The notes under the pieces were generated by a model. The model had not been told where the DNA came from, did not search any database, and saw nothing but the letters and a program-made list of their open reading frames with translations. A program made the translations under genes and the position numbers. Below are positions 47,823-64,000 of a stretch of 64,000 nucleotides of DNA, in pieces. The stretch lies in NCBI GenBank assembly GCA_947473355.1, contig CANJCQ010000002.1:59436-123435 (forward strand). Direction: 5' to 3'. The number at the start of each line of letters is the position of its first letter. The first letter of the stretch is position 1. The DNA comes from Sphingomonadaceae bacterium (GTDB taxonomy: Bacteria; Pseudomonadota; Alphaproteobacteria; Sphingomonadales; Sphingomonadaceae).

Positions 47823-48341
47823 ATGCGAGTCAAACTGAACGAAGCAGTGCCGGAGGACGGGCCTGACCTGATCCAGTCCAATCTGCAAAGCCGGGACCTG
47901 CACAGGCCCTGGGCGAGTCCATTTATTGATGAGCAAGGCTTTCAGCAGTGGCTGGAACTTGCCGGGGCCGAAAACTACGCCGGCATGGTCGCTCGCACGG
48001 TTGAAACGGGTGAGATCGTCGGCGTAGTGAACATAAGCCAGATATTCATGGGAGCATTCCAGAGCGGGTATCTCGGATATTATGGTTCGATTCACTGCGC
48101 GGGCAGGGGCCTGATGACCCAAGCCGTGCGAGCAGCCGTGCATTTTGCATTCGGGCAGCTTGGCCTTCACCGCCTGGAAGCCAACATTCAGCCGGATAAT
48201 GTCAGGTCGATCCAGCTGGTTCGCAGGCTGGGCTTTCGCAAGGAAGGCTTTTCTCCGAAATACCTGAAGATAGACGGTCAGTGGCGCGACCATGAACGCT
48301 GGGCGATCCTGGCGGATGAATTTGGTGATGAACTACGCTAG
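47823..48341 (+). CDS. GNAT acetyltransferase, RimJ-like
   Basis: This 172-residue acetyltransferase has the GNAT core (TGEIVGVVNISQI, GRGLMTQAVRAAVHFAFGQLGLHRLEANI, NVRSIQLVRRLGFRKEGFS) of the RimJ/RimL group. It is divergent from the transporter operon and so perhaps independent. It probably acetylates a ribosomal protein or an amino-sugar/amino-acid alpha-amino group. Confidence 0.85.
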   Translation: MRVKLNEAVPEDGPDLIQSNLQSRDLHRPWASPFIDEQGFQQWLELAGAENYAGMVARTVETGEIVGVVNISQIFMGAFQSGYLGYYGSIHCAGRGLMTQAVRAAVHFAFGQLGLHRLEANIQPDNVRSIQLVRRLGFRKEGFSPKYLKIDGQWRDHERWAILADEFGDELR

Positions 48342-48422
48342 CGACCCCGCAATCTGCCATGCGATAGTCATTGAAACCTCACCGCCAGCTGCAACAGACC
48401 TTTGTATGAACGGGCGGGCGTC

Positions 48423-48989
48423 TCAAAGAATGATCCGGTAGAGCAGTCCTTCATCTCCGCCAAAGACGTCATCCTTGATGAATGTGCTGACCAGGTTGCC
48501 ACCAGCCCGCTCAATGCTGCGCTGTGATGCGATATTGTCGGGACTGGTGGTCAGGTCGATATGGGAGAGGCCCAGAGCGCGGGCATCGGGCAGCAGCGCC
48601 CGAATTGCCATTGCCGCATAGCCATTGCCGCGCTTGGCGGGGATGACTGCAAATCCGATATGGCCGAGCACATGGGAGGGCAGATCAGCCGTGCCTCTCT
48701 GCCAACGGAAGCCAATGCTTCCGCAAAAGTCGCCGTCCCAGAGCCAGCGTCGATAGCCCGGCAGGCGAGCCCGCGTCGTGCCGTCAGGCATCAGGATTGG
48801 GTCTCCCGATGCTTCCCGGTCTTCCAGAGACACGAGGAACGCGGCCGGATCATTGGCAATCCAGTCCAGCTCTCGCCGGGCGGTCGCCGCTCCGTTTACA
48901 TTATCAGGCGATCAGCCACCCTCCAGCGCGGCCCGGTAAGCTGGCAGGTGTGAGAGACCGGGTACGACCAGGCAGAACGCGTCAGACAT
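48423..48989 (-). pseudogene. GNAT acetyltransferase gene with an in-frame TGA
   Basis: From the ATG at 48989 the frame reads like the family N-terminus (MSDAFCLVVPGLSHLPAYRA), then TGA at 48912-48914 (codon 26), then SPDN and a continuous, well-conserved acetyltransferase to 48423. In relatives the W of GW-SPDN stands where the TGA is, so TGG to TGA is the likely change. A partial ORF from a GTG at 48833 would lack about 50 N-terminal residues. It is either a pseudogene by one nonsense mutation, or a sequencing error. Confidence 0.75.
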
Positions 48990-49105
48990 TGCACCATTTT
49001 GCGTTACTGCCGTGCAAGGTCAAGTCCATGCTGTGACTTGCGTCGGAGCATGCATTTCGAGCCGAAGCGAAAACCAATTGCGATTTGCGTGGAAGGGGCC
49101 TCGAT

Positions 49106-50461
49106 TCAGGCCACGACCTCGCCGATCGATTTGCTCGTTTCCATGCTCTTTGAGCCCCACCGGTCGAGCGATACGCCCATGACCTGTTGCAGGGTCAGCC
49201 CGACCCGGCTGACCGGGGTGCCAGCGCCATCGACGTAGATCCCGGTCTTCATCCTGCCGCCGGCGCTGCCTGCGGTCATGATCGGGATATTGTCGATGGT
49301 ATGGAACTTGGCGAATTCGGTTTCAGAGTGGGCCAGCACCAGGGTATTGTCGAGCAGAGTGCGGCTGCCTTCCTTGATGCCGTCAAGCGCGGCAACAAAG
49401 CCGACCCAGGCTTCCATGATCTTGGTAAGGAAATAGGTCGCGTTGGGCTGATAGCCGAGCCGGTTGTCGAGCACTTCCTCATGTGTCAGCTGATGATGCG
49501 TGATGGTCGAGCCGATCCGGGTCAGCGAGCTCGCGCCGTTGTTGAACATCATATTGAAGATGCGTGTCTGGTCGCAGGCCAGTGCCATGACCAGCAGCTG
49601 GGTCATCAGCTGGTGGTTGAGGATGACATGCTCGATCTCGGCATTGACCGGCAGATCGGCGACGCTGCGTGGCACGACGCAGCTCTGGAGTGGCTCGGGC
49701 TTGGTCAGCTGGACGTCGAGCTGGTTTTCCAGCTGGCGCACCGAGGTGTAATACTGGTCAAGCTTCTGCCGGTCGGCCGCGCCGACCGCGCGTTCGAGCG
49801 ACTGGCGCTGTTCGGTCACTGCCGAAAGCACCGAGCGCCGCGCCATGACTTGCGGATCTGGCGTGAAGGTCGCGCTGTTGGGATCCTTGAAGCCGGTGCC
49901 GAAGATGCGGGTATAGAGCGCCGAGGCTGAAACTTCGGACGGGTTGAGATTGCCGCCGCCGCGTCCCGACAGCGAATTGCGCGGATCGCCAGAGCTGGAC
50001 ATTTCGAGGCTGCGAAAGCGGGTGCGGGTGCCGATCAGATCGCCGATCGTCACGTCGAAGCTTTCGCCTGGCAGGCCGCGCTCGGCGGTCAGCGCGCGGC
50101 CGGTGCGGATCGCAGGGCCGCCGCTGGCATGGGGCAGGTTGGGCGCGCCATCCAATGGTACGTTGAAATTGCCATAGACGTTGATCTTGTTCTGATAGTC
50201 CTTGATCGGCGCCAGTTCGGGCTTGAGATCGTAACCCGGCCCGACCTTGCTGGGGAACCAGCGATTGGGATTGACGCCTAGGCCCCAGAACCAGGTGCCG
50301 AAGCGCACAGGAACCGCCGCGACGCCCCCTGTTGCTGTCGGCGCTGCCATGGCCTCGCCATTGCCGTCGAGGAATGCATCGAGCAGTGGTACGCCGACCG
50401 CAACCGCCGCGCCGTTGACTACGCCCCTGAGAGCCGTTCTGCGGGAAATTTCGTATCCCAT
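49106..50461 (-). CDS. Tat-exported DUF1552 protein
   Basis: This 451-residue protein begins ISRRTALRGVVNG and has a hydrophobic core and an A-x-A site, a twin-arginine signal, so it folds in the cytoplasm and is exported. The body matches DUF1552 (FWGLGVNPNRW, GPAIRTGRAL, the LVLAHSETEF segment), a family that occurs mostly with DUF1592 proteins. The start has AAAGGAG. It is the last gene of the operon and starts 4 nt past the DUF1592 stop. No function is known; the paired occurrence suggests a secreted two-protein enzyme. Confidence 0.85.
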   Translation of the reverse strand: MGYEISRRTALRGVVNGAAVAVGVPLLDAFLDGNGEAMAAPTATGGVAAVPVRFGTWFWGLGVNPNRWFPSKVGPGYDLKPELAPIKDYQNKINVYGNFNVPLDGAPNLPHASGGPAIRTGRALTAERGLPGESFDVTIGDLIGTRTRFRSLEMSSSGDPRNSLSGRGGGNLNPSEVSASALYTRIFGTGFKDPNSATFTPDPQVMARRSVLSAVTEQRQSLERAVGAADRQKLDQYYTSVRQLENQLDVQLTKPEPLQSCVVPRSVADLPVNAEIEHVILNHQLMTQLLVMALACDQTRIFNMMFNNGASSLTRIGSTITHHQLTHEEVLDNRLGYQPNATYFLTKIMEAWVGFVAALDGIKEGSRTLLDNTLVLAHSETEFAKFHTIDNIPIMTAGSAGGRMKTGIYVDGAGTPVSRVGLTLQQVMGVSLDRWGSKSMETSKSIGEVVA

Positions 50462-50465
50462 GCTA

Positions 50466-52175
50466 CTATCTCCTTTGACCAGCATAGCTGATCTTGGTTG
50501 CGCCCTGATCGAGTGGGGCTGCCTTCACTTGCCAGGTTGCCGGCATGGTCGCGACCTTGAGGAACAAGGCGCGGATGCCATAGCCGCTGGCGGCGAATTG
50601 CTTGTCTAGTGCTTCGACCCACGGCGAGACGTCCTCGCTGCCGAGGCCAGTGGCATATTGCAGCGCGCGCGAAGAGACGCACTGCGTTGTGTCAGGGCTG
50701 GAAGCAAGCGTCTTGCCGAGGCCGTCCGCGCCTTCGAAGTGCATCCCGTCGAGGATCCCGCTGGAATCGATCGGCGTGTCGTTCTCGGCGGCGCGGAAGG
50801 CGCCGATGCCGTCGAAGCGTTCGAGGCTGAGCCCGACCGGATCAGTGATCTTGTGGCACCCGGCGCAAACCTCGTCAGTGCTGTGCGCGGTCAAGCGGCT
50901 ACGCGCGGTGGGGGTTGCCTTGTTGTGCACGTCCTGCACTGCCGTGAAATTGACGTTGCCCGGCGGATTGGGCACCGGCTGGCACATCAGCAATTCGCGG
51001 ATCGCGCGGCCACGCAGGGTCGGCGAGCTGCGGCCCGAATGCGAATAGATCGAAAGAAAACCCGCCTGGCCGAGCAGGCCGGCGCGGTCGTCTCCGGCTG
51101 CGAACTGATAGGGCTCCCAGCCCGCCGACTTGTGCACTGGCACCTGATAGAGCGGCCCGAGCGAGCGGGTCATGAAGGTGTTGGGGGTGGTGAACAGCGC
51201 CCGGTAATCGCCGCCCTTGCCCAACAGATGCGCGGTGATCGTGCGCAGCGTCTGTTCGGGCAGGGCCTTGGCGACATCCTGGTTGAAATAGGGATAGATC
51301 ACCGGATCCTTGGCCAGCTCGTCGAACTTTTCGAACAGCAGCATGTCGGAAAAGAAGGCGCGCAGGCCCTGTTCGAAGCGCGGCGAATTGACCATCCTGC
51401 CCGCGATCACTGCCAGCGCGGCATCATCGGTCAGCTTGCCCTGCTGCGCGGCCTGCAGCAGCGCCTCGTTCGGGGTCGAATTCCACAGCATGAAGCCGAG
51501 CCTGGTGGCGCGGGTATAGTTATCGAGCCGCAAGGCACCCGGGTTGGCCGGATCGGGCTCGGCAGTCTCCACAACGTAGAGGAAATTGGGAGAATCGAGC
51601 ATCGCCGACAGCGACAGCTCAAGCCCCTTGTAGAATGATCCGGTCTGCCCGGCGGAATCGCCCGCCAGCTTGACATAGAAATCACGCTCGCCGGCACTCA
51701 ACGGGCGGCGGAACAGCAGGCGGCCCAGCGGCGCCAGCACCTTGCCCGCGCAATCCGCATCAGCCTTGGTGGCATCGGCAGGCTGGCATTCGGCGAACTG
51801 GCTGCGCCGCGATTCATCAAACACCTGGGCGGCAACGCCACGCGCCATCGCGTCGAATTGCTCAAGCCCGGCCGGTGAAATGCTCGCCTCGCGTGCGCCG
51901 CTGGCGATCAGCTCGTGCGCCGGCCGCACCACCGGCTCGAAGCGGCCGGCAACGCGAACATCCGGCCCGAAGATGTCGGCGATCGTATTGCGATACTGCG
52001 CCTCGGTGATCCGCCGCATGGCGACAATCTGGAATTGCGGGGCCAAGGCCGCCTGCGCCGAGGGGGCAGGGGAGGCGATGCTTGGGGGTGTATCGACCGC
52101 GCCAACGCCAGCCGCCAGTGCGGATGCGGCGGCAAAGCCAAGGGTAGCCAGTTTCAAAAGTTTAACGCGCTTCAT
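50466..52175 (-). CDS. DUF1587/1592/1588/1585 protein with one CxxCH motif
   Basis: This 569-residue exported protein has a signal peptide (ALAAGVGAVDTPP), DUF1587 (RRITEAQYRNTIADIFG), DUF1592 (LSAMLDSPNFLYVVE), DUF1588 (HSGRSSPTLRGRAIRELL and MCQPVPNPPGN) and the C-terminal DUF1585. A single CAGCH at 437-441 suggests a c-type haem. The N-terminal cytochrome domain of planctomycete versions is absent. It is in an operon with the DUF1552 gene and probably forms the haem-bearing half of a periplasmic oxidoreductase; that is inference. Confidence 0.85.
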   Translation of the reverse strand: MKRVKLLKLATLGFAAASALAAGVGAVDTPPSIASPAPSAQAALAPQFQIVAMRRITEAQYRNTIADIFGPDVRVAGRFEPVVRPAHELIASGAREASISPAGLEQFDAMARGVAAQVFDESRRSQFAECQPADATKADADCAGKVLAPLGRLLFRRPLSAGERDFYVKLAGDSAGQTGSFYKGLELSLSAMLDSPNFLYVVETAEPDPANPGALRLDNYTRATRLGFMLWNSTPNEALLQAAQQGKLTDDAALAVIAGRMVNSPRFEQGLRAFFSDMLLFEKFDELAKDPVIYPYFNQDVAKALPEQTLRTITAHLLGKGGDYRALFTTPNTFMTRSLGPLYQVPVHKSAGWEPYQFAAGDDRAGLLGQAGFLSIYSHSGRSSPTLRGRAIRELLMCQPVPNPPGNVNFTAVQDVHNKATPTARSRLTAHSTDEVCAGCHKITDPVGLSLERFDGIGAFRAAENDTPIDSSGILDGMHFEGADGLGKTLASSPDTTQCVSSRALQYATGLGSEDVSPWVEALDKQFAASGYGIRALFLKVATMPATWQVKAAPLDQGATKISYAGQRR

Positions 52176-53374
52176 CGTGCTGCGGTCCTCTGCCCGGTGG
52201 GGACGTCATTTACAAAGGCGGGTACGGCGCTCATCTGTTCGGCTGACGAAACGCCGCTGCACTGGCCGGTTTTTGGATCGCGGATCCCGTCGGCCAGCTT
52301 CTTCAAGGTGGCATGGTAGGCTGCGCAATCGATGCCGGCGACCAGCGCCGTGCCAGCGCCACCTAGTGCCATTGCCTGATAAACATCGAAGATCGGCCTG
52401 TAACCGCCAACCAGACCTCGCAAGGTGCCGTCGGGCTGGAAAGCGAGTTGCAGCCGTCCCTGGCGCATTTCCCATTTGGAGCGCGCCCCCCGGATGTCGC
52501 GCGCGCCGCCCTGGCCCCAGGTTTCGGTCAGCACGATGTCCTGCGGCCGGGTGGTCAGCACCCCGTTCACGATCCTGCCGCGCAGCACATTGCGATAGCG
52601 CGGCGCCGTGTTGTTGATTGTGAAGCTGACCCCGGAAAGGAAATTGCCGTTGGTGTCGACATTAGGCCGGTCCGAGGTGTTGGCATAGACAACCTCGACG
52701 TCATTGTCGTTTTGCAGGCTGTCGACGCCGCGCAGCAGCAGCACCTGCGTCCATTCGCCCGACGAGTGGAACTGCTTTGAACCCCGGGTGATGTCGCCGC
52801 CCGATCCATCGACACCGCGCCATTCAAGGGTGCAGCCCATGGCGCGATATACCTGGTTGTCGATGCCCTTTTCGCCGGTCGGGCTGCTGAAATTCTCATG
52901 CGTGCAAGTGCTGTTCGGCGCGGCGTCCTCATCGAGATTGAGCCCGAACGCATAAGGGCTCTGGACAGTCCTGATCAGCGGGTGATCGAATATATCAGGC
53001 TGCGAGCAGATATTGGTGCCGTTCGCACCGAAGGCATAACTTTGCCAGCCCCGCTCGAATTCCTGGATGTTTTCCTTCAGCTTAAGCCGAGCATGCTCTT
53101 CCGGCGGCAGTGTTTCGAGCCAGGCGTCGCGCAATCGGGGCACAGTGCCATTGGGGCAGGCATCCAGCCCTGGAACCACGGTCTGCGCCAGACTTGAGAC
53201 AACGAAGCCCATCTCGCCATTGGCTGGCGGTCTGGGCAAGGTGCGGTCTGTCGCTTCGCCGACAGCAGGCGAGCCCAGCGGGCCGCTCGCGCCGGTCATC
53301 GGCCCAAGCGCCAGCAAGGCGGCGATGGCCGCCGAACACCGCGCAAGGCGCCTGTTGCCGGCGCTGCGCATCAT
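52172..53374 (-). CDS. Secreted protein of unknown family, paralogue B
   Basis: This 400-residue protein has a signal peptide (LARCSAAIAALLALGPMTGASG), and the shared motifs PPANGEMGFVV, GTNICSQPD, GIDNQVYRAMGCTLEWRGVDG, SGEWTQVLLLRGV, and C-x-G-VSS near the end, with six to eight cysteines after the signal. It has about 60% visible identity with its neighbour A. Its start overlaps the stop of A (ATGA). I know no family for it. The conserved cysteines and aromatic residues suggest a stable disulfide-bonded envelope protein. Confidence 0.82.
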   Translation of the reverse strand: MMRSAGNRRLARCSAAIAALLALGPMTGASGPLGSPAVGEATDRTLPRPPANGEMGFVVSSLAQTVVPGLDACPNGTVPRLRDAWLETLPPEEHARLKLKENIQEFERGWQSYAFGANGTNICSQPDIFDHPLIRTVQSPYAFGLNLDEDAAPNSTCTHENFSSPTGEKGIDNQVYRAMGCTLEWRGVDGSGGDITRGSKQFHSSGEWTQVLLLRGVDSLQNDNDVEVVYANTSDRPNVDTNGNFLSGVSFTINNTAPRYRNVLRGRIVNGVLTTRPQDIVLTETWGQGGARDIRGARSKWEMRQGRLQLAFQPDGTLRGLVGGYRPIFDVYQAMALGGAGTALVAGIDCAAYHATLKKLADGIRDPKTGQCSGVSSAEQMSAVPAFVNDVPTGQRTAAR

Positions 53375-54576
53375 CGCGCGGCGGTCCGCGTGGCTGTGTT
53401 CGGATCGTTGACGAAGGCGGGCAGGGCCTGGATGCGCACAGCACTTGAAACGCCAGTACATTTGCCGGTTTTGGGATCGCGGATGCCGTCGGCATATTTG
53501 CGCAGCGTGCTCAAGGTAGCCGCGCAATCGATACCGGCCACAACCGCCGAACCGATCCCGCCGAGCGCAGGCGACTGGATAACATCAAATACCGGACGAT
53601 AGCCAGCCAGCATGCCGGTGGCGCTGCCATCGGGCTGGAAGGCGAGCCGCAACCGGGCGCTGCGGAAATCATACTTGGTGCGGTTGCCGCGGATGTCGCG
53701 GGCGCCGCCCTGGCCCCAGGTCTGGGTGAGTTTCACGTCGGTGGCATCGGTCGTCAGCACGCCATTCTCGATCCTGCCGCGCAGGACGTTGCGGTTCCTC
53801 GGCGGCTTGTCGCTGACCGAAAAGCTGGCACCGGGCAGGAACTTGCCCATCGAGTCCACCGTCGGCCGGTCTGGCGTATTGGCGTATATCACTTCGACAT
53901 TGTCATCGCGAACCAGGCTGTTCACGCCGCGCAGCAGAATGACCTGGGTCCATTCGCCCGAGACCATGAACTGCCGCATGCCCACTTCCTGGTCGCCGGC
54001 AATGCCGTCGACGCCGCGCCATTCGAGGGTGCAGCCCATCACCCGGTATTCCTGGTTGTCGATGCCCTGATCGCCGGTGGGGGTCTGGAAGGTTTCATGT
54101 TCGCAGCTATCGGCACGGCCCCTGCCGCCGCCGTCGAGGTCCATGCCCCAGGCCATTTTGCTTTGCACGGTGCGCAGAGGTGTCCGGTTCTCGAACAGAT
54201 CGGGCTGCGAGCAGATATTGGTGCCATTTGGCCCGATCACATCGGATTGCCAGCTGCGGGTGAGCTCTGTCTCGTTTTCCTTGAGCAGCAATCTGGTGCG
54301 CTCTTCTGGCGTTTGCCGGGCGAGATAGGCGTCGCGCAGTTTGGGCGTTGTGCCCTGGGGGCATGCGTCTGGGCCCTGGATCACTGGCTGGACGAAGTGC
54401 GTGACAACAAAACCCATTTCGCCATTGGCCGGCGGCGCAGGCAATTTGGCGAGGGCTGTTTCGCCCTCGGCTGGCGAGGCCAGCGGCTGTCTGCCGCCAG
54501 TCATCGGCCCGATCGCCAGCAGCGCGGCGAGAGTGGCGGTGGTGGTGGCAATCCGCATCATGGCGCGCTTCCTCAT
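53371..54576 (-). CDS. Secreted protein of unknown family, paralogue A
   Basis: This 401-residue tandem duplicate of the protein at 52172-53374 has a signal peptide (TTATLAALLAIGPMTGGR) and the same motif order and cysteine places (DACPQG, NICSQPDLFE, MGCTLEWRGVDG, GIDCAATL, GKCTG). Start 54576 overlaps the upstream stop (ATGA). The pair may form a heterodimer, or may have arisen by duplication to bind two related ligands. Confidence 0.82.
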   Translation of the reverse strand: MRKRAMMRIATTTATLAALLAIGPMTGGRQPLASPAEGETALAKLPAPPANGEMGFVVTHFVQPVIQGPDACPQGTTPKLRDAYLARQTPEERTRLLLKENETELTRSWQSDVIGPNGTNICSQPDLFENRTPLRTVQSKMAWGMDLDGGGRGRADSCEHETFQTPTGDQGIDNQEYRVMGCTLEWRGVDGIAGDQEVGMRQFMVSGEWTQVILLRGVNSLVRDDNVEVIYANTPDRPTVDSMGKFLPGASFSVSDKPPRNRNVLRGRIENGVLTTDATDVKLTQTWGQGGARDIRGNRTKYDFRSARLRLAFQPDGSATGMLAGYRPVFDVIQSPALGGIGSAVVAGIDCAATLSTLRKYADGIRDPKTGKCTGVSSAVRIQALPAFVNDPNTATRTAAR

Positions 54577-55463
54577 GGCCGCAGCACCGTGCCCGAAGCC
54601 GGGGCCTTGGCCGGGTTGTCTTCCTGGCTGATGAAGACCGGCTTGCCGCGCCAGGTCCATTGCGGATTGTCGCTGGCCAGACTGATCGCCCATTCGCCGA
54701 AGCCCCTGCCAGCCATCGGCGCAGCCAGCGGCACCCATCCAGCGCAATCGGTCGCGCAAGTTCCGGTGAACAGCACCCGCCCGCTCTTGTCGGTCAGCGC
54801 ATAGGCGCCATCAACGAACTGGGTCGCAACACTGGAAGGCGCGGTCAGCTTGGGCACCGACGGCACGAATTTCAGTGAGTTCCAGGTGAAATTGTCAGCT
54901 CCGTCATAGGCGGTGCTGCCTGGCCTTTCGCTCTTGCGAGTATAGACCATGTGCCAGCCCTTGTAGACCCATTGCGGCCCCTGCGGACCCTGGATGATCG
55001 TCCAGTCCGGGGCGTTCGCCTGGGCGATGAAGCCGGGCGGCACTGCGTTGAAGCCACCGCGCACTGGCGCCGGAGCCGCGCCTGCTGCGGGAGCCGCTGC
55101 GCCCGGTGCCGCTGCCGGGCGGGCCGGCGCCTGACCGAACCCGCGCGGGAAGACGACGTTGGGCTTCGAACCGGGAGGGGCCAGCATCGGCAGCCATGTC
55201 TCGGCGCAGGGGCTCTGGCAATATTGCGCAGCATCAGAGCTCCAGCGCACCAGCGTGCGCATGTCCATGCCATAGAGCGTGTGCCCCTGGGCATCGGCAT
55301 AGACCGGACCTTTGGCGGTCTGGCGGACAGCCACGCCTGGCGGATATTGATCGGTGGACGCCGCCGGAATCGGCAGATCGACCGGTTGGGCATGGGCAGG
55401 GACCACCGCAAGCGAAGCGGCCATGGCCAGCACGGCGATCATTGCAGGTAGGCGCTGCATCAT
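54573..55463 (-). CDS. Secreted COG4315 protein with two repeats
   Basis: This 296-residue protein has a signal peptide (MIAVLAMAASLAVVPAHA) and two copies of the small COG4315 repeat (the Y-x-[FWY]-x2-D type): TLYGMDMRTLVRWSSDAAQY with CQSPCAETW, and a second with ALTDKSGRVLFTGTCATDCAGWVPL. An Ala/Pro-rich linker joins them (APARPAAAPGAAAP). The protein starts with GAGGAG upstream. It lies between the TonB receptor and the two paralogues. COG4315 members are secreted and of unknown function. Confidence 0.82.
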   Translation of the reverse strand: MMQRLPAMIAVLAMAASLAVVPAHAQPVDLPIPAASTDQYPPGVAVRQTAKGPVYADAQGHTLYGMDMRTLVRWSSDAAQYCQSPCAETWLPMLAPPGSKPNVVFPRGFGQAPARPAAAPGAAAPAAGAAPAPVRGGFNAVPPGFIAQANAPDWTIIQGPQGPQWVYKGWHMVYTRKSERPGSTAYDGADNFTWNSLKFVPSVPKLTAPSSVATQFVDGAYALTDKSGRVLFTGTCATDCAGWVPLAAPMAGRGFGEWAISLASDNPQWTWRGKPVFISQEDNPAKAPASGTVLRP

Positions 55464-55522
55464 AGCGTGATCGGCTCCTCTCACGAATCCGGTCCAGTGG
55501 TTTGCTGGTTATCTGTCCGGCA

Positions 55523-55547
55523 GATTAGTTCGTAATATGAATTAGTC
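55523..55547. promoter_or_regulatory. AT-rich inverted repeat before the COG4315 gene
   Basis: GATTAGTTC-GTAATAT-GAATTAGTC is an A/T-rich imperfect palindrome in the 133-bp gap between the TonB gene and the COG4315 gene, in an otherwise GC-rich background. It may mark an internal promoter/operator for the five downstream genes. Confidence 0.4.
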
Positions 55548-55596
55548 AATCCGGCGGCGCATGGAGCCGGTGGATGGCGCGGTTCCCCGATCACCA

Positions 55597-58008
55597 TCAG
55601 CGTGAGCCCAGCGCAAAGCGCATGGTGATGCCGAATTCGCGCGGATCAGTGGTGCTGATCCCGACATAGGGGCTAAGCACTGTCTGCGCGCCCGTCGCTG
55701 ACTGGAAGCTGGTCCCCTGCTGCGCCGTGCCGCGGGTCAGCACGTTCTGGCCGTTGAACAGGTTTTTGCCATAGAACGAGACTTCCCAGCGCCCATCGGG
55801 TTTGCGCAGGCCCATATAGAGATTGAAGCGGGCATAGGAGCCGATGTCGTCGAACGCATTGTTCGGATCGTTCTCGGTGTTCCCGTTGTAGGAAAGCAGC
55901 CCGCGCGCAAAAGCTTCGGTCCCGCCGAAGGCCTTCTCGAGCGGCAGGTTATAGTCGAAATGCGCGACCCCGCTCCACACCGGTGAGAACGACGAGCGCG
56001 GGCTGCCGGTGCACAGCGCAAGGTGGTTGGTGGCATAGTTGGGGATGGCCTGGAGCTGCGCCACAGTCGGCGCCGCCGACAGCACGTCGGCAATGCCGTC
56101 GCCGTTGAGATCGTTGCACGGCAGAATGCCGTTTTTGATCCGCCCCAACGCATAGTTGAGATTGCCGCCGATATTGAAATGCGGCGTGACCTGGAATGAA
56201 GCTTCGGCCTCCACGCCGTGCACCCGCACAGTGGTTTCGGCGACGAAGTTGAATGCTGCGCCGCCGGCGCTGACAGCGGGCAACTGATTGACGCCGGACT
56301 GGGTGAACGACAGATAGTAGATCGTCGAATTCGGGTGGAACGGATAGTTTTCGTAGTCCTGCTGATAGGCGGAAATGTTAAAGCGGGCGCGGTTGTTAAG
56401 GAAATTGGTCTTGATGCCGATTTCATAGCTCTTCGAGGTTTCCGGCCCCTGGTGGGTCATATCGAATTCGCGCTGTGACTGGTTGACGCTGAAATCGCCG
56501 ACCGCAACCCCGCCCGGGCGCCACGATGTGCCGAAGCTGGCATAGGCCAGGATGTTCGGGCTGAAGCGATGTTTCAGCGAAGCGTTGTAGATCCATTTCT
56601 CATAGGAATCGGTGTAGTTCGCAGCCGGGTTGAACACCCCGTTGATGCTCAGCAGGTGGTCGCTGCTATAGCTGATGTGTCGCGCGCCGGCCGAAAGTTC
56701 GGTCGAATCGCCGATGTGGGCAATGACATTGCCGAAATAGCTCTTCTCCACCGAACTGCTGCCCTGGCTGATTGGCGTCACGATCAGGCTGATGGGCCTG
56801 CCGGGAATGTTCAGGATCGTGTTGTTGGCCAGCGAAGTGCCTTTGCCGCTGGTCGGCATCGAATCGAGCTTGTTGTAGAAATAGCCCAGCACATAGTCGA
56901 ACATGTCGGCGACGCGATCGTCGTTCTGCAGGCGGATTTCATGCGTTCGCGCGGTGCTGTCCGTCTTCGTTCTGCCCGTGATCGACAGCGCCGGGAAGAT
57001 AACCGCGCCGTCCGCATCGGCGCCAATCGAGAGCAGATCCTGGGTGACATAGGAACCGATGTAGACCAGCTTCTGGCTGGCGTAGCGCAGCTGGGCCTGC
57101 CAGTTGAAGATCTGGAATTTCTGGGTGTTGTTGGTCGGGCTCTTGGAGTTGGAAAGGCGATCGGCTGGATCGATGTGGATCGCTCCATCGGCCACTGTCG
57201 GAACGATATTTCTGAACGATTCTACCTGACCAAACGTCCGGCTCGCCCGTTCGGCATATTGGTAGGTTCCGCTCAGCGACAGGAAATCGAAGGGCTCGGC
57301 GCGCATGCTGATCCGGCCCGCCTTGGTGCGGTCGGAAGGTTCGATCTGGCTGTTCAGACTGCGCACGCGGTTGCCCTGGTTCCAGTCCAGCAGACCGGAG
57401 ACGCGCACGGCAATCTTGTCGCGCCAGACCGGTATGTTGAGCGCGGCATTGAGATTTTCGCCGTCGATGGAGTTGGCCGTGGCGTCCACAAAGCCGCCGA
57501 AACTCTCGAGATTGGGTTTGCGCGTCCCGATCGTGATCGATCCGGAAGGCGAGGCGCGCCCGCGCAGAGTGCCCTGGGGCCCGCGCAGCACTTCGATTTG
57601 TCCGATGTCGAACATTGCCATGAACAGTGCGCCCGAAGAGATCGAGGCATCGTTGAAATAGTATTCGATGGTGCCGCTGTTGCCGCTGACATTGACGTCG
57701 AAATTGACCCCGCGCACCGAGGAGACCGTGCCGATGCCGTTGGCATTGTTCTTCATCTGCAGGCCAGGGACGACCGACTGAATGTCCTCGAACTTGCGCA
57801 GGTTCAGCTTTTCAATGGTTTCGGCGGTGACCGCGTTGATCACGATCGGCACGTCCTGCGCCACCTCGTCGCGCCGCCGCGCCGAAACGATGATTTCTCC
57901 GTTATCGGAATCATCAGTGGCTGCGGTTGCCGCCTCTTCGGCCCATGCCGGGCTTGCCAGTGACAACAGGCTCACGCTCGCAAAAGCAAGATTCCGAAAC
58001 TTACGCAT
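55597..58008 (-). CDS. TonB-dependent outer-membrane receptor
   Basis: This 803-residue receptor has a signal peptide ending SPAWAEE, a TonB-box-like GEIIVSARRR, a plug (RGVNFDVNVSG, IEVLRGPQGTLRGRASPSGSITIGT), and a barrel ending in FGITMRFALGSR. It lacks a clean terminal aromatic, ending in R. It heads the operon of the COG4315, paralogue and DUF1592/1552 proteins, so it should import or bind the ligand of that system. It is only distantly like the receptor at 13.9 kb. Confidence 0.92.
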   Translation of the reverse strand: MRKFRNLAFASVSLLSLASPAWAEEAATAATDDSDNGEIIVSARRRDEVAQDVPIVINAVTAETIEKLNLRKFEDIQSVVPGLQMKNNANGIGTVSSVRGVNFDVNVSGNSGTIEYYFNDASISSGALFMAMFDIGQIEVLRGPQGTLRGRASPSGSITIGTRKPNLESFGGFVDATANSIDGENLNAALNIPVWRDKIAVRVSGLLDWNQGNRVRSLNSQIEPSDRTKAGRISMRAEPFDFLSLSGTYQYAERASRTFGQVESFRNIVPTVADGAIHIDPADRLSNSKSPTNNTQKFQIFNWQAQLRYASQKLVYIGSYVTQDLLSIGADADGAVIFPALSITGRTKTDSTARTHEIRLQNDDRVADMFDYVLGYFYNKLDSMPTSGKGTSLANNTILNIPGRPISLIVTPISQGSSSVEKSYFGNVIAHIGDSTELSAGARHISYSSDHLLSINGVFNPAANYTDSYEKWIYNASLKHRFSPNILAYASFGTSWRPGGVAVGDFSVNQSQREFDMTHQGPETSKSYEIGIKTNFLNNRARFNISAYQQDYENYPFHPNSTIYYLSFTQSGVNQLPAVSAGGAAFNFVAETTVRVHGVEAEASFQVTPHFNIGGNLNYALGRIKNGILPCNDLNGDGIADVLSAAPTVAQLQAIPNYATNHLALCTGSPRSSFSPVWSGVAHFDYNLPLEKAFGGTEAFARGLLSYNGNTENDPNNAFDDIGSYARFNLYMGLRKPDGRWEVSFYGKNLFNGQNVLTRGTAQQGTSFQSATGAQTVLSPYVGISTTDPREFGITMRFALGSR

Positions 58009-58344
58009 AGATTTCCCCCCTCAGATGCGGATCAATTCTGGTGATCCTCCAACCCGTATCCCATCACTTCACAGCAGAATTTCGAGCCACTGCTTCCTCC
58101 GCTCTGTCAGAGACAGCAAACATGTCCTTTAAAACAGCGACTTCCGCATTCCCTCTTGCTGTAAAGCTGAACGTGCATCACATTTCATTCTCTTTTTGAA
58201 CTGTTGTCAAGTTTGTGGAGCGAAAATGCTGACGCACCTGCCCGCGCTGCCAGCGCGCGCTGATCGCGTCAGCTATCCCGATCTACCGGCCTGATAAATT
58301 TGGCCGCCAGCAATGAGCCGTATTGGTTGTAAGGAGAATTGAAA
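58009..58344. other. 336-bp divergent intergenic region
   Basis: This gap holds the promoters for the receptor operon (- strand) and for the small COG4315 gene (+ strand). It is A/T-rich at 58130-58220 and contains no ORF or RNA gene I can support. GCGCGCTGCCAGCGCGCG-like GC-rich symmetry at 58240-58262 may fold, but no function is clear. Confidence 0.5.
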
Positions 58345-58722
58345 ATGTCCATTCTGATTTATGCACTGGCTGCAACAGTGCAACCGCCAGCGACCCCGCC
58401 GCAGGTCCAGACAATCAAGGAAGGCGATGCCTACGTCATGCGCACGCTTGATGGGTCCAGGCCGATCTACACCTTCGACCGCGATGAGCCCGGCAAATCC
58501 AATTGCATCGACCGCTGCATCATGGCCTGGCCCGCCGTCACCGCACCAGCGGGTGCAAAACCGGTTGGCAAGTGGACCACAATCGTGCGCGCTGATGGAA
58601 CCTTGCAATGGGCATTCGATGCCAAGCCGGTCTATACCTTTGTCCGTGACAGCGAAGGCACGGCCTCTGGCGACGGTATGGGCGGTGTCTGGCACCTGCT
58701 GCCATCCACTCCCGGCGGGTAA
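58345..58722 (+). CDS. Small secreted COG4315 protein
   Basis: This 125-residue protein has a short hydrophobic start (SILIYALAATVQ) and a COG4315-type core: PIYTFDRDEPGKSNCIDRCIMAWPAV, and VYTFVRDSEGTASGDGMGGVWHL. AAGGAG lies 8 nt before its ATG. It lies divergently next to the receptor operon that encodes a two-repeat version, which suggests that both serve one system. Confidence 0.78.
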   Translation: MSILIYALAATVQPPATPPQVQTIKEGDAYVMRTLDGSRPIYTFDRDEPGKSNCIDRCIMAWPAVTAPAGAKPVGKWTTIVRADGTLQWAFDAKPVYTFVRDSEGTASGDGMGGVWHLLPSTPGG

Positions 58723-58859
58723 ACCGCCACATTGCAGCTCAATCAGCGAAAATTCAGCTCGACAAGGTTGTGTCGTTTGACGGCTACACTATGCAGTTCG
58801 GAAGAGCCTGCGGGAGGTGAACGACTTCCGCAAATGCAGGAATTGCGACTGAGGGTGCG

Positions 58860-59696
58860 ATGAAGACCTTTCTAAAACAATGCCGCTGGGGTCAGTTCCT
58901 CCTTATCCAGGGCGATATGATCAGCGGCTATGTTGACAAGCTGGGCCATTGGTCTGCGATTGAGGTCGATCTGTTCCGCGCCTTGCTGCCGTATGAGACA
59001 GGCGTATGCATCGAGGTTGGCGCAAATATCGGCATGCATACTGTTCCTCTGGCGCAGCTGTGCTCGCGCGGTGAGGTGATCTGTTATGAGCCGCAGCGGC
59101 CGATCTATCATGTCATGTGTGCCAATGTCGCGCTGAACAATTGCCTCAATGTCTGCACCCGCCGGGCGGCGGTTGGGGCAAGGGCAGGCCGGATCGAGAT
59201 TCAGTCGAGTGATTATGAGACGCCGTGGAACTATGGTTCCTTTTCAATTTCAAAGGGTTTCGATCAGGAAGGGGACTTTACCGGCCAGATAAAGAGCGAA
59301 ATGGTCGATATTGTTTCGCTCGATGAAGATCCTGCGCTCGAACATCTGACCAGGGTCGACCTGCTGAAGATTGATGCCGAAGGGCATGAGGTGGATGTCA
59401 TCCGCGGAGCGGAAAAGCTCATCACGCGGCACCGGCCAAACATTTTCGTCGAGCCCGGCTCGGCTCAGAATGCTGACCTGCTGCGCGATCTTCTGGCTGG
59501 CCACGGCTATTCCGGCTTCTGGTTTGTCGGCAGGCGTTATGGGCCGGATGATGATTTCCAGCCCGAGCCTGGCAGCAACCATTATGACGTCAATCTCGTG
59601 TTCCGGCCCAGCGAAGCCGAGCCGCTCAATCTGCCAAAGCTGGTCAGTTCGGAAGATTTGACGAACGGCATCCCGGTGCTGGTGAGCTTTGCATAG
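58860..59696 (+). CDS. FkbM-family methyltransferase
   Basis: This 278-residue SAM-dependent methyltransferase has the motif I IEVGANIGMHTVPLA, and LLKIDAEGHEVDVI later. FkbM proteins O-methylate sugars or polyketide hydroxyls. It is followed by a hairpin and a convergent sulfotransferase remnant, so this may be a former envelope-glycan decoration locus. Confidence 0.83.
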   Translation: MKTFLKQCRWGQFLLIQGDMISGYVDKLGHWSAIEVDLFRALLPYETGVCIEVGANIGMHTVPLAQLCSRGEVICYEPQRPIYHVMCANVALNNCLNVCTRRAAVGARAGRIEIQSSDYETPWNYGSFSISKGFDQEGDFTGQIKSEMVDIVSLDEDPALEHLTRVDLLKIDAEGHEVDVIRGAEKLITRHRPNIFVEPGSAQNADLLRDLLAGHGYSGFWFVGRRYGPDDDFQPEPGSNHYDVNLVFRPSEAEPLNLPKLVSSEDLTNGIPVLVSFA

Positions 59697-59711
59697 CGCG
59701 CCTGCGCGCTA
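59694..59711. other. Hairpin at the end of the FkbM gene
   Basis: TAGCGCG-CCTG-CGCGCTA is a perfect 7-bp stem that includes the stop codon. It lacks a U tract, so it is a doubtful terminator. Confidence 0.3.
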
Positions 59712-59723
59712 AGCCTTTGCGGG

Positions 59724-60170
59724 CTAAACCATTGCTGTGTTGGCCCGCGTGAACTCCGTGTCCGATTCCCAGAACGGAACGCCTGCATACCTGGCGACCA
59801 CATCGGGCGGCAGTATGACCCTGGATGGCACCGCGCCCACTTGCTGCCGCACATCATGCAGCCCTGGCGCGCCGAGCAAGGCGTCAAATGCCTTCTCCGC
59901 GAAGGCGACATTGTCGAAATCGTGCCCATGCGTCGGCTCGCCGATAAATTGGTAGATCTGATCGATCACAGCTGCGGGGTTGCTGACCAACCTGCTGTAG
60001 GAAATAACCATCAAACGATCGCTGTTGTGACCGTAGAATGCTTCCTTCAACCCATTCAGCGCCAGTCCGACCAGGCCATTGGCCATCATCAGCCGTTCGG
60101 TGCGGACATAGACTGAGTCCGGCGTACTTCCTGCAAAACCATAAATGCCCCTTTTAACTATCGTAACGAC
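59724..60170 (-). pseudogene. Sulfotransferase C-terminal remnant
   Basis: The frame is open from 60170 to 59724. It encodes the C-terminal half of a sulfotransferase: IYGFAGSTPDSVYVRTE, ANGLVGLALNGLKEAFYG, MVISYSRLVSNP and IYQFIGEP. A TGA at 60171-60173 closes it, and the PAPS-binding N-terminus (PRSGTS-type loop) is not found upstream. It is most likely a 5'-truncated remnant. Confidence 0.7.
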
Positions 60171-60566
60171 TCACACCCGACCATGGATAACCATTTGCAA
60201 CGACAAGAGCAACTCCTGTCGCTGCACAAAAGTTGCGCCAGGCCGTGCGTGTTAAAGGCATGGATGGCAGGATATGATTGTAGAATTGCGACAGGCCGCG
60301 CAGATTTGGCGGGCCCCGGGGCCAGGTGCCGGACAGTGCGTTGCTCTACCTGGAGTGGCGCGAAAAGTCGGAAAATTGGCCGAAAACGGGCTGAATTCAC
60401 TACGGATTAACCGCGATTGCTGACCTTGCAGATTCAGTTAAGCTGCTATGGCTAAATGGTGTTTTTGTTCCTAGACTCGCCCCGGATATGCCAAGCCGGG
60501 CCGGTTGCACCACAATGGGGCAAGAGGCACGGCGAGGGCGCAGGCATTCGGGGTAAGCGGAATACA
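60171..60566. other. 396-bp region without a clear gene
   Basis: This gap, where the N-terminal part of the sulfotransferase would be expected, shows no frame resembling it. Open frames here have no ribosome site. It may hold the promoter of the following gene; no hairpin or repeat stands out. Confidence 0.45.
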
Positions 60567-61214
60567 ATGATCAATATTTTCAAAGTGATGCATCCGAAAA
60601 TCACAGGGATCAGGATGGTCCGAATTCGCACGATTCTCGCCGCTATAATTTTTTGTCTCGGAATCGGCGGCATCGGTGGCGGGATCGTCCTGGCGCTCTC
60701 CTCCGAATCGGCAATGGCGCAGGCTGCAACTGCCATGCCGCCGCCATCGCCGATGCCAGTGCCGAACGAGCTCGAACTGGCCAAGCTGATCTGGTCGACC
60801 ATGGCTGCGGTCGATCATGCCAACGCGGCCGGCAACTATTCGGTGCTGCGTGATCTTTCTGCCCCGGCGTTCCAGATGAACAACGATTCGGCGCGGCTGG
60901 CGAAGATCTTCGAAACCCTGCGCGCCAGCAATGTTGATCTGTCGAACACCATGCTGCTGGCCCCGACCTATGAATTCGCGCCAGTGATCATGAGCGGCGG
61001 CATCCTGCACGTGAAGGGCTTCTTCGGCCTGCGCCCGACCGCGATCGGCTTCGATCTTTATTATCAGTGGCTGCAAGGCAAGTGGCGACTCTATGGCGTG
61101 TCGATCGTGCCTTCGAGCATTTCGGCGGTGCAGCCCGGGCCTCCCGGCCCGCCCGCGCGCCCCCCGGCTCAGCCAACACGCCCTCCGGCCCAGCCGCGCT
61201 CCGACGGCAGGTAG
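60567..61214 (+). CDS. Secreted or membrane-anchored proline-rich protein
   Basis: This protein of about 215 residues has a hydrophobic segment (ILAAIIFCLGIGGIGGGIVLAL), an AMAQAA site that may be cleaved, a middle domain (ELAKLIWSTMAAVDHANAAGNYSVLRD, FETLRASNVDLSN, ATSYEFAPVI-like strands) and a C-terminal proline-rich tail. The start at 60567 is uncertain; an ATG at 60615 would also keep the signal. The middle domain recalls NTF2-like proteins, but I am not sure. Unknown function. Confidence 0.6.
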   Translation: MINIFKVMHPKITGIRMVRIRTILAAIIFCLGIGGIGGGIVLALSSESAMAQAATAMPPPSPMPVPNELELAKLIWSTMAAVDHANAAGNYSVLRDLSAPAFQMNNDSARLAKIFETLRASNVDLSNTMLLAPTYEFAPVIMSGGILHVKGFFGLRPTAIGFDLYYQWLQGKWRLYGVSIVPSSISAVQPGPPGPPARPPAQPTRPPAQPRSDGR

Positions 61215-61312
61215 GGAAACGGACAAGCGCGGCTTGCATTCCCATTGCGCTTGAGGCAATGCAATTGCTCTTGCGCAATAGGGCTTGCATGCCTTTCGGG
61301 GAATGATCCAAA

Positions 61313-62983
61313 ATGAGCACGTTCGACGAAACCTATGACTTTGTCGTGGTTGGCAGTGGCGGCGGCTCGATGTGTTCGGCGCTGGTCATGCGCGAGAATG
61401 GCAAGTCGGTGCTGATTGTCGAGAAGACCGCGCTGGTCGGCGGGACCACGGCGCGTTCTGGCGGGGTGATGTGGATCCCCGACAACCGCTTCATGAAGCG
61501 CGACGGTGTTCCCGACAGCCAGGACCAGGCGAATACCTATCTCGATGCCGTGGTCGGCGATCATAACGATACGCCCGGAGCCAGCCGTGCGCGGCGGCAG
61601 ACTTATGTTGCCGAAGCAACACGGATGGTCGATTTCCTGGTCGATCAGGGGATCAGGCTGAACCGCGTGTCCTATTGGCCGGACTACCGCGACGAGGCGC
61701 CTGGCGGATCGGAGAAGGGGCGCACGGTCGTTGCCGAGCTGTTCGATGTCAATGAGCTGGGCGACAAGAAGGCCATGCTGCGCCCCAACTTCATCCCGAT
61801 GATGAGCACGCTCGATGAAATGCTGAAACTGCGCTTCATCAAGAAGAGCTGGGAATCGCGCCGCATCGCGGTCCGCTTTGCGCTGCGCACTGTAGTCGCC
61901 AAGCTCACCGGCAAGCACTTTGTCACGGCCGGCGCGGCGCTGCAGGGGCGGATGTTCCAGGCTGCGCTCAAGGCCGGCGTCGAATTCCGCACCAATGCTG
62001 CGGTCAAGGAACTGGTGGAAGAAGACGGCCGGGTTACTGGCGTGGTCGCCATGGTGGATGGCCAGCCGCGACGGTTTGGCGCAAATCTTGGCGTGCTGGT
62101 CAATGCCGGCGGCTTTGCCCACAACCAGAAGATGCGCGACCTCTATATTCCCAACACCAGCACCAAATGGACCAACACTGCCGAGGGCGATACCGGCGAG
62201 ATGATCCTCGAAATGATGCGCCACGGCGCCGCCATTGCCCAGATGGATGAAATGGTCGGCAATCAGATGTCGATCCCGCCGGGCATGGAGGATGCGGCCG
62301 TAAAGCCGGTGGTGCAGGGCGTCACAGCCGCGCCGCATGCCATCCTCGTCGATCAGTCGGGGCTTCGCTACATGAACGAGAGCGGCTCCTACATGACCTA
62401 TTGCCAGGGCATGCTGGCGCGCCACAAGACAGTGCCTGCCGTGCCCAGCTGGGCGATCATGGATAGCCAGTACATGAAGAACTACGGCTTCATATCGCCC
62501 TTGCCGAGCGCGAAGAAGCCGCAGGAATGGTATGACAAGGGCTTCCTCAGGAAGGCCGATACGCTGGAGGAACTGGCTGCCCTGCTGAACATGGATCCCG
62601 CCACGCTGCGCGGCACGGTGGACCGATTCAACGGCTTTGTCGCAAAGGACTGCGACGAGGATTTCCACCGCGGCGAGCGCGCCTATGATCGCTGGCTGGG
62701 CGACAAGTTCCACCCGAAGAACGCCTCGCTCGGCTCGATCGCCGAGGGGCCGTTCTATGCTGCGCAGGTCGTCCCCGGCGATGTCGGGACCTATGGCGGC
62801 GTCGTGACGGACGAAAAGGCCCGCGTGCTGCGCGACGATGGCTCAGTGATCGATGGCCTCTATGCCACCGGCATCAGCACCGCCTCGGTGTTCGGCCGCG
62901 CCTATGCAGGAGCCGGGGCCAGCGTCGGCCCGTCGTTCGTCTGGGGCTATGTCGCGGCGAGCAATGCGGTGGGGGTGGCCTGA
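61313..62983 (+). CDS. FAD-dependent 3-ketosteroid dehydrogenase-like protein
   Basis: This 556-residue flavoprotein has the N-terminal FAD motif VVVGSGGGSMCSAL, GGTTARSGG, and the C-terminal FAD/active-site region with Y531-A-G-A-G535, ASVGPSF, the equivalent of the KSTD Tyr-x3-Gly site. It should introduce a double bond next to a ketone in a steroid-like A ring (1,2- or 4,5-dehydrogenation), although some relatives are fumarate-reductase-like. Together with the SDR that follows, it fits the steroid theme of the island. Confidence 0.85.
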   Translation: MSTFDETYDFVVVGSGGGSMCSALVMRENGKSVLIVEKTALVGGTTARSGGVMWIPDNRFMKRDGVPDSQDQANTYLDAVVGDHNDTPGASRARRQTYVAEATRMVDFLVDQGIRLNRVSYWPDYRDEAPGGSEKGRTVVAELFDVNELGDKKAMLRPNFIPMMSTLDEMLKLRFIKKSWESRRIAVRFALRTVVAKLTGKHFVTAGAALQGRMFQAALKAGVEFRTNAAVKELVEEDGRVTGVVAMVDGQPRRFGANLGVLVNAGGFAHNQKMRDLYIPNTSTKWTNTAEGDTGEMILEMMRHGAAIAQMDEMVGNQMSIPPGMEDAAVKPVVQGVTAAPHAILVDQSGLRYMNESGSYMTYCQGMLARHKTVPAVPSWAIMDSQYMKNYGFISPLPSAKKPQEWYDKGFLRKADTLEELAALLNMDPATLRGTVDRFNGFVAKDCDEDFHRGERAYDRWLGDKFHPKNASLGSIAEGPFYAAQVVPGDVGTYGGVVTDEKARVLRDDGSVIDGLYATGISTASVFGRAYAGAGASVGPSFVWGYVAASNAVGVA

Positions 62984-62985
62984 GC

Positions 62986-63801: not shown

Positions 63802-63850
63802 GCTTTTCTCCTTGGGCTAAGCGCCGTGATGTCTGGAAAGGAATCACTTT

Positions 63851-63921
63851 TCTCCGTTCGTGTCGAGCGAAGTCGAGACACCTGCGAGCGGCCTCTCGAC
63901 TTCGCTCGAGGCGAACGGAGA
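63851..63921. repeat. Long inverted repeat, dispersed-type sphingomonad element
   Basis: Arms of 32 nt (63851-63882 and 63890-63921) pair with about four mismatches around a 7-nt loop. The core TCGAGCGAAGTCGAGA and its complement are of the type scattered through sphingomonad intergenic regions. I recall this from general knowledge. It could act as a terminator or a REP-like element. Confidence 0.7.
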
Positions 63922-64000
63922 GAGGAAAAAGATCAGTGCGCTGAAAGGCGCGGGCCTCCCACCCAACCGCATCGTCTTCTCCGAAAAATTCGCGTGTCCC

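What the first reader, a model, noticed from the sequence alone, without database searches (positions are those of the whole stretch)
49106..58722. Undescribed envelope system: TonB receptor, COG4315, two paralogues, haem DUF1592 and Tat-exported DUF1552
Six - strand genes run with ATGA or near-zero spacing after the receptor, and five of them are secreted proteins of unknown function. DUF1592/DUF1552 pairs are best known in Planctomycetes and similar bacteria; here they are joined to a TonB receptor and duplicated cysteine-rich proteins, with a second COG4315 gene on the other side. The layout suggests a secreted redox enzyme with a dedicated outer-membrane gate, acting on a substrate that is bound or oxidised in the periplasm.
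Basis: partly seen in the sequence, partly recalled or inferred. Interest (0 to 1): 0.9.

Follow-up and report, generated by a model that had tools for sequence, protein, structure and literature searches.

The report
Conserved periplasmic haem-protein redox operon
Four kinds of gene, whose proteins are predicted to be exported and one of which carries a haem-binding motif, form a closely spaced set that recurs in distant bacteria (one marker gene gives 27 matches in a single genome) and that likely oxidises imported compounds between the two cell membranes, a job I found nobody to have demonstrated.

Summary
After the TonB receptor come five minus-strand genes: a Lipoprotein_15-type protein (LIP15), two paralogues without Pfam model (PAR), a five-domain DUF1592 protein with one CxxCH, and a twin-arginine DUF1552 protein. 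The set is not accidental. In the host genome all PAR, DUF1592 and DUF1552 matches fall in three clusters. In 99 genomes of the genus, PAR and one DUF1552 subtype occur in the same 17. Of 48 PAR loci with 5 kb or more on both sides, 45 carry both DUF genes and 42 also LIP15. The dedicated receptor is weaker: a 67% orthologue sits at one other locus, but most Novosphingobium-type loci have no receptor near. The window's copy lacks both. DUF1552 is predicted to have an alkaline-phosphatase fold. Best reading: a periplasmic oxidoreductase whose electrons pass through haem c to the membrane; substrate, electron direction and catalysis are inferred. My paper searches found no study of the combination.

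The parts
55597..58008 (-). TonB-dependent receptor (803 aa), first gene of the run
   Evidence: PF00593 8.8e-28 and PF07715 1.1e-11; 67% orthologue beside the module in L139
54573..55463 (-). LIP15: Lipoprotein_15/COG4315-type protein with two CxxxC pairs and an N-terminal hydrophobic signal
   Evidence: no Pfam hit alone; profile match 99.8% to module LIP15 proteins; 11 of the 19 members of that alignment match PF03640, the window's 58339 gene included
53371..54561 (-). PAR-A: predicted exported protein of a family without Pfam model (start 54576 is the alternative)
   Evidence: no Pfam hit, no NCBIfam hit; 62% identical to PAR-B; GAGGAAG in front of 54561
52172..53374 (-). PAR-B: paralogue of PAR-A; predicted beta-barrel core
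50466..52175 (-). DUF1587-DUF1595-DUF1592-DUF1588-DUF1585 protein with one c-haem motif CAGCH
   Evidence: five Pfam domains over cut-off; CxxCH once in 77 of 77 homologues
49106..50461 (-). DUF1552 (HXXSHH) protein with Tat signal; predicted alkaline-phosphatase-superfamily fold
58339..58722 (+). small Lipoprotein_15 protein, divergent from the receptor (ATG at 58345 is a likely alternative start)
   Evidence: PF03640 5.7e-22; two YTFxRD motifs

Best explanation
The cluster is a conserved gene module (LIP15 - PAR - DUF1592 - DUF1552, with PAR doubled and a TonB receptor in front here) that likely works as a periplasmic, substrate-specific oxidoreductase whose electrons would leave through the DUF1592 haem c. 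Shown by sequence: the gene set, its repeated co-occurrence, the single CxxCH, the twin-arginine signal, and the neighbouring cytochrome c' and b561 genes in relatives. Predicted: DUF1552 folds like the alkaline phosphatase superfamily; PAR has a beta-barrel core; the genes form an operon. Inferred: the receptor, where present, imports the compound; PAR and LIP15 bind it or scaffold the complex; DUF1552, folded with its metal before Tat export, activates it; the haem c of DUF1592 takes the electrons and passes them to cytochrome c' and cytochrome b561, hence to quinone. Many copies in one genome would then serve different substrates.
For: Host genome: all DUF1592 (3), DUF1552 (3) and PAR (5) matches lie in three clusters, C2, C22, C30; Lipoprotein_15 Pfam matches lie only in C2 and C30. 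Genus: PAR in 17 of 99 genomes, DUF1552 of the PAR-linked subtype in the same 17. Wider: of 48 PAR loci with at least 5 kb on both sides, 45 hold both DUF genes within 6 kb and 42 also LIP15. Redox partners: a cytochrome c' homologue within 5 kb in 15 of 17 Novosphingobium-type and 3 of 4 other sphingomonad loci; cytochrome b561 within 5 kb of DUF1552 in 10 of those 21 although the host genome has only 2 b561 matches; in Sphingobium sp. TomMM15 the order PAR - DUF1592 - DUF1552 - cytochrome c' - cytochrome b561 runs with overlaps or gaps of at most 26 bases. Tat signal on DUF1552 fits a cofactor inserted in the cytoplasm. Copy number: 27, 22 and 11 PAR matches in three genomes.
Against: The window's own cluster has neither cytochrome c' nor b561; the host genome's four c' matches lie elsewhere, two of them at the sister clusters C22 and C30. 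The alkaline-phosphatase fold is otherwise a fold of hydrolases, mutases and transferases (recalled), so redox chemistry there would be unusual. Electron direction cannot be read from genes. Outside sphingomonads cytochrome c' is near only 3 of 56 loci. PAR can stand alone: no DUF1592, DUF1552 or LIP15 in a 33-kb stretch of Sphingobium sp. TomTYG65 (L170), nor within 6 kb in L062 and L084. TomMM15 shows no LIP15 among the eight proteins tested. Most Novosphingobium-type loci have no receptor within 6 kb. No expression or activity data were found.
Confidence: 0.4

Rival explanations
1. Electrons run the other way: quinol via b561, cytochrome c' and the DUF1592 haem feeds an oxygen-activating or reductive step on an insoluble or bulky substrate, as c-cytochrome domains can prime bacterial LPMOs.
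For: b561 and c' beside the module fit either direction; Cellvibrio Cbp2D, important for growth on insoluble cellulose, has a c-type X183 domain that can reduce an LPMO (PMC12542752, passages), and a CBM2 protein of Cellvibrio is annotated DUF1592 (PMC6004670, one table passage).
Against: No copper-monooxygenase family is among the flank families shown, but only the top 25 of 160 and of 81 families were shown and flanks were only sampled.
Confidence: 0.2
2. DUF1552 is a hydrolase (phosphatase-, phosphodiesterase- or sulfatase-like) and the haem protein is structural or regulatory; the module removes ester groups from imported compounds.
Against: Sequence profiles show no significant alignment to superfamily members (probability 0.7%); read by eye, His111 stands where the Thr/Ser/Cys nucleophile should be, which is an inference only. 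It leaves the constant haem partner and c'/b561 genes unexplained.
Confidence: 0.2
3. The module is an envelope redox or stress-defence device (oxidant, NO or metal handling) and not catabolic.
For: Cytochrome c' proteins are known gas binders (recalled); LIP15 has CxxxC pairs; a DUF1552 gene is listed in a table of a Rhodopirellula stress-transcriptome paper (PMC2754498, passage).
Against: Patchy accessory distribution (17 of 99 genomes), up to 27 PAR matches per genome and flanks with dehydrogenases, P450s and transporters look like substrate-specific loci.
Confidence: 0.12
4. The TonB receptor is a chance neighbour and no part of the system.
For: Receptor within 6 kb in only 2 of 17 Novosphingobium-type loci and 5 of 18 partly overlapping genus loci; 50 receptor matches in the host genome; 133-base gap to LIP15.
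Against: 67% orthologue on the same strand 1.6 kb upstream of PAR in L139; the two closest receptors in the protein database sit on contigs of the same lengths as PAR hits (34468 and 6977 bases), an inference from lengths; receptors under 400 bases from a module gene in 8 of 77 loci.
Confidence: 0.3

Closest known systems
Planctomycete-specific cytochrome proteins: PSCyt3/PSD (DUF1587/1592/1595/1588/1585) next to a family of unknown genes, as in Verrucomicrobia (PMC5615132, passages)
   Same: Same five Pfam domains and one CxxCH; adjacent DUF1552 gene here, which I take to be that paper's unknown family; function stated there as unknown, with a guess at carbohydrate redox chemistry.
   Different: Here the pair is bound to PAR and LIP15, in sphingomonads also to cytochrome c' and b561; no carbohydrate-binding domain or sulfatase in the cluster by Pfam.
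DUF1501-DUF1800 operons (PMC5122149, passages)
   Same: Two-gene pairing of a Tat-signal protein with a partner of unknown function, spread by transfer.
   Different: Different Pfam families; linked there to chitin synthase genes.
Cellvibrio Cbp2D / Teredinibacter TERTU_2913 redox proteins (PMC12542752, PMC10916295, passages)
   Same: Secreted c-haem proteins tied to recalcitrant matter; their X132 domain carries CxxCH and may be the DUF1587-type module (my inference; the paper prints DUF1687).
   Different: Single large proteins; no PAR/LIP15/DUF1552 partners reported in the passages read.
TonB receptor EdcT of Caenibius (Novosphingobium) tardaugens (PMC7793797, passages)
   Same: Sphingomonad TonB receptor tied to uptake of a hydrophobic substrate (oestradiol).
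   Different: The main text holds no word beginning DUF; kinship of the two receptors was not tested.
Alkaline phosphatase superfamily (PafA, ENPP, sulfatases)
   Same: Predicted fold of DUF1552.
   Different: No significant sequence similarity found; constant partnership with a haem protein.

Membership tests
PSCyt3/DUF1592 - DUF1552 pair | DUF1587, DUF1595, DUF1592, DUF1588, DUF1585 in one protein | tested here: met
   all five over their cut-offs
PSCyt3/DUF1592 - DUF1552 pair | c-type haem motif CxxCH | tested here: met
   CAGCH; one in 77 of 77 homologues
PSCyt3/DUF1592 - DUF1552 pair | neighbouring DUF1552 gene | tested here: met
   PF07586 8.6e-50
Alkaline phosphatase superfamily (DUF1552) | superfamily fold | tested here: met
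Alkaline phosphatase superfamily (DUF1552) | catalytic nucleophile and two-metal ligand set | tested here: inconclusive
   profile alignment not significant, probability 0.7%; His111 at the nucleophile place is a reading by eye
Lipoprotein_15 / COG4315 (54573-55463) | match to PF03640 | tested here: not met
   no match at E 0.01; yet related by profile to a set most of which match
Lipoprotein_15 / COG4315 (54573-55463) | Yx(FWY)xxD motif (recalled as the COG's definition) | tested here: not met
   none found; 54 of 74 LIP15 proteins have it
Lipoprotein_15 / COG4315 (58339-58722) | match to PF03640 and motif | tested here: met
   5.7e-22; YTFDRD, YTFVRD
TonB-dependent receptor | plug and beta-barrel | tested here: met
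Known periplasmic dehydrogenase-cytochrome pairs (PQQ, GMC) | PQQ or flavin catalytic domain in the module | tested here: not met
   no such Pfam domain in the six proteins at E 0.01
Avidin/lipocalin-like barrels (PAR) | fold | tested here: inconclusive

The most novel reading that the evidence does not exclude
A new class of quinone-linked periplasmic oxidoreductase in which a protein of the alkaline-phosphatase fold does redox work through an obligate haem-c partner, with its own secreted binding proteins, laid out as multiplied substrate-specific loci (oxidative counterparts of polysaccharide utilisation loci) in sphingomonads, other Alphaproteobacteria and more distant bacteria.
Probability: 0.25. 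Interest if true: 0.92.

Novelty: new variant of a known kind. Interest (0 to 1): 0.72.

Why it matters
Proteins of the DUF1592/DUF1552 kind carry only placeholder names in the papers I could search, though one planctomycete genome is said to hold 41 copies of each of two sister domains (PMC2754498 passage). This module gives them fixed partners: an unnamed protein family (PAR), Lipoprotein_15, cytochrome c' and cytochrome b561. That turns 'unknown secreted redox protein' into a testable chain in cultured Novosphingobium and Sphingobium strains, and a redox role for an alkaline-phosphatase-fold protein would be a surprise in enzymology.

Tried and rejected
Steroid catabolism as the specific function: suggested by a 3-ketosteroid-dehydrogenase-like gene at 61313-62983 (645 bits, below its 789 cut-off), FAD_binding_2 genes 16 and 40 bases before PAR on the same strand in two loci (L059, L061) and PAR genes on large replicons of Sphingobium isolates from alpha-tomatine-treated soil (their paper PMC10653915, passages has no word beginning TonB or cytochrome in its main text). 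Not adopted: the flank families are mixed (4 of 105 FAD_binding_2; 8 of 94 short-chain dehydrogenases) and no control against genome background was run. Those two calls scanned 105 of 297 and 94 of 110 flank genes, chosen to fit the size limit.

Promoter and terminator scans of 48300-58900: at chance level; one 12-base palindrome only; no Rfam match at gathering score in 48000-64000. Thus transcription of receptor and following genes as one unit is undecided. The abscisic-acid transcriptome paper of strain P6W (PMC6938937, part 1 of 2) lists no genes. A paper search for CHRD with cytochrome and TonB gave nothing to the point by its listing. The narrow two-sequence receptor profile was replaced by a 17-sequence one.

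Limits of the counts: the 'same 17 genomes' result uses a subtype split (under 200 bits) that I made after seeing the scores; one further genome, G030, has a 21.5-bit fragment with a stop below the cut-off. Genomes are related, so 17 are not 17 independent events. Of the 77 loci, 26 come from two metagenome bins (16 from CANJRD, 10 from CANJPQ, counted from its table), and all were fetched by PAR, so they cannot show how often the DUF pair occurs without PAR. One search shows that DUF1552 does: 26 genomes hold the other subtype, 23 of them without PAR. Of 13 plasmid records with a PAR match I looked at 3: one full module (L171), one module without LIP15 (L169), one PAR alone (L170).
Full report
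What is there. Between 49106 and 58008 on the minus strand lie a TonB receptor (55597-58008) and five closely spaced genes: LIP15 (54573-55463), PAR-A (53371-54561), PAR-B (52172-53374), a DUF1587/1595/1592/1588/1585 protein (50466-52175) and a DUF1552 protein (49106-50461); a small Lipoprotein_15 gene (58339-58722, plus) faces the receptor. PAR is my label for the paralogue family; neither copy has a Pfam match and PAR-A has no NCBIfam match. PAR-A and PAR-B are 62-63% identical.

Is it accidental? No. In the host genome (4.05 Mb, 141 contigs) DUF1592 gives 3 matches, DUF1552 3 and PAR 5, all in three clusters: the window, C22 and C30. C30 repeats PAR - DUF1592 - DUF1552 - LIP15 with a receptor behind it; C22 has PAR - DUF1592 - DUF1552 - PAR between P450 genes. 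Lipoprotein_15 Pfam matches occur only in the window and C30.

Genus scale. DUF1552 is found in 40 of 99, in two score classes: 335-354 bits (26 genomes, 23 of them without PAR) and under 200 bits. The low class occurs in exactly the 17 PAR genomes, and its genes lie within about 3 kb of a PAR gene except in G041, where the two stand on separate contigs, PAR at base 1 of its own. The split was made after the fact; one sub-cut-off fragment in G030 is set aside. In a sample of 289 alphaproteobacterial genomes DUF1552 is rare, 6 of 289, the host included.

Wider scale. A scan of genome contigs with the PAR alignment gave 77 loci (the best 80 kept of 193); 26 of the 77 come from two bins. With profiles for the parts, 63 of 77 hold DUF1592 and DUF1552 within 6 kb of the PAR match; among the 48 loci with at least 5 kb on both sides it is 45, and 42 with LIP15 too. 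Exceptions among the 48 are L062 and L084 (no other part within 6 kb) and L067 (no DUF1592 within 6 kb). In Novosphingobium-type loci LIP15 stands before PAR (13 of 13 full loci), elsewhere mostly after (26 of 30 full loci with LIP15). Record titles name Novosphingobium, Sphingobium, Hyphomonas, Rhodospirillaceae, Steroidobacteraceae, Acidobacteria and 'Marinimicrobia' bins; bin names were not checked. Copy number is striking: 27, 22 and 11 PAR matches in three of ten genomes searched. PAR can also stand alone, as in Sphingobium sp. TomTYG65 (L170, 33 kb).

Redox partners. A cluster of flank genes proved to be cytochrome b561, within 5 kb of DUF1552 in 10 of the 21 sphingomonad loci, while the host genome has only two b561 matches, neither at a module. 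In Sphingobium sp. TomMM15 the annotated order is PAR, DUF1592, DUF1552, cytochrome c', cytochrome b561 with overlaps or gaps of at most 26 bases; no LIP15 was found among the eight proteins tested there. Searching with that cytochrome c' then showed a homologue within 5 kb of the module in 15 of 17 Novosphingobium-type loci, 3 of 4 other sphingomonad loci, and 3 of 56 remaining loci; these homologues were not scanned against Pfam one by one. In the host genome two of four PF01322 matches sit at C22 and C30, and a third stands near a b561 gene on C7. The window's own cluster lacks both, which is evidence against a complete chain at this locus; the C7 genes might serve it (inference).

The receptor. 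Its close group is small: six full-length proteins at 65% identity or more among the 120 listed of 2702. One is 67% identical and lies in L139 (a genome whose contig length, 6172107, is that of Novosphingobium sp. G106), on the same strand 1.6 kb upstream of the PAR frame, with a cytochrome c' gene between; LIP15 gives only a 100-aa match there. The two closest receptors lie on contigs whose lengths equal those of PAR hits, which suggests linkage without proving it. Against it, only 2 of 17 Novosphingobium-type loci and 22 of 60 others have a receptor within 6 kb; 8 of 77 have one under 400 bases away (my counts; many flanks are cut by contig ends). In 18 loci from genus genomes, partly the same loci, it is 5, one of them a fragment (my count). 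The receptor is best seen as an optional partner.

Reading. The constant DUF1592-DUF1552 pair looks like a two-subunit enzyme: a Tat-exported, probably metal-bearing subunit and a haem-c subunit. PAR and LIP15 are extra predicted exported proteins; c' and b561 would link the pair to the quinone pool. The patchy spread, the copy numbers and the catabolic flanks (short-chain dehydrogenases, P450, FAD enzymes, transporters) favour substrate-specific loci. I commit to a periplasmic oxidoreductase at 0.4; direction of electrons, substrate and the role of PAR and LIP15 are inferred.

Literature. Searches for DUF1592/DUF1552, the sister names and COG4315, PSCyt/DUF1501/DUF1800 and 'domain-containing' names found no study of PAR or of this module in the held open-access library. 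[quoted passage not shown] PMC5122149, PMC2754498, PMC6004670, PMC7789669, PMC12542752, PMC10916295, PMC7793797, PMC8399759 and PMC10653915 were seen as passages only; PMC6938937 as part 1 of its two parts.

Noticed in passing
L070:1891-2595 and 24 relatives in 20 loci: CHRD-domain proteins (domain checked on L070 only) sit within 0-120 bases of the module in many non-sphingomonad loci; perhaps another partner there.
   Followed up: partly
window:61313-62983 (+) and 62986-63801 (-): 3-ketosteroid-delta-1-dehydrogenase-like flavoprotein (645 bits, cut-off 789) and a coniferyl-alcohol-dehydrogenase-type SDR (307 bits, cut-off 242) near the contig end.
   Followed up: partly
window:41589-47778 (-): Oligopeptide-type ABC importer genes in a row: two ATPases, two permeases, binding protein.
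   Followed up: no
window:58860-59696 (+): FkbM-type methyltransferase gene beside the small Lipoprotein_15 gene.
   Followed up: no
26 of 99 genus genomes, e.g. G029:C11:315314-316240: A second DUF1552 subfamily (335-354 bits over the whole Pfam profile), without PAR in 23 of its 26 carriers; its neighbours were not examined.
   Followed up: no
G000:C7:17517-18032 and 18922-19284: A cytochrome b561 and a cytochrome c' match about 0.9 kb apart on one strand, away from the three modules.
   Followed up: no
L005 (G000:C22:1-20000): The C22 copy of the module is flanked by two P450 genes, a TauD-type oxygenase and TetR regulators.
   Followed up: no
L139:16291-19378 (-): Two Abhydrolase_10 proteins beside the receptor orthologue.
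   Followed up: no
L170:15524-16774 (Sphingobium sp. TomTYG65 plasmid): A PAR gene alone, beside a choline-dehydrogenase-type gene and a LysR regulator, without the other module parts in 33 kb.
   Followed up: no
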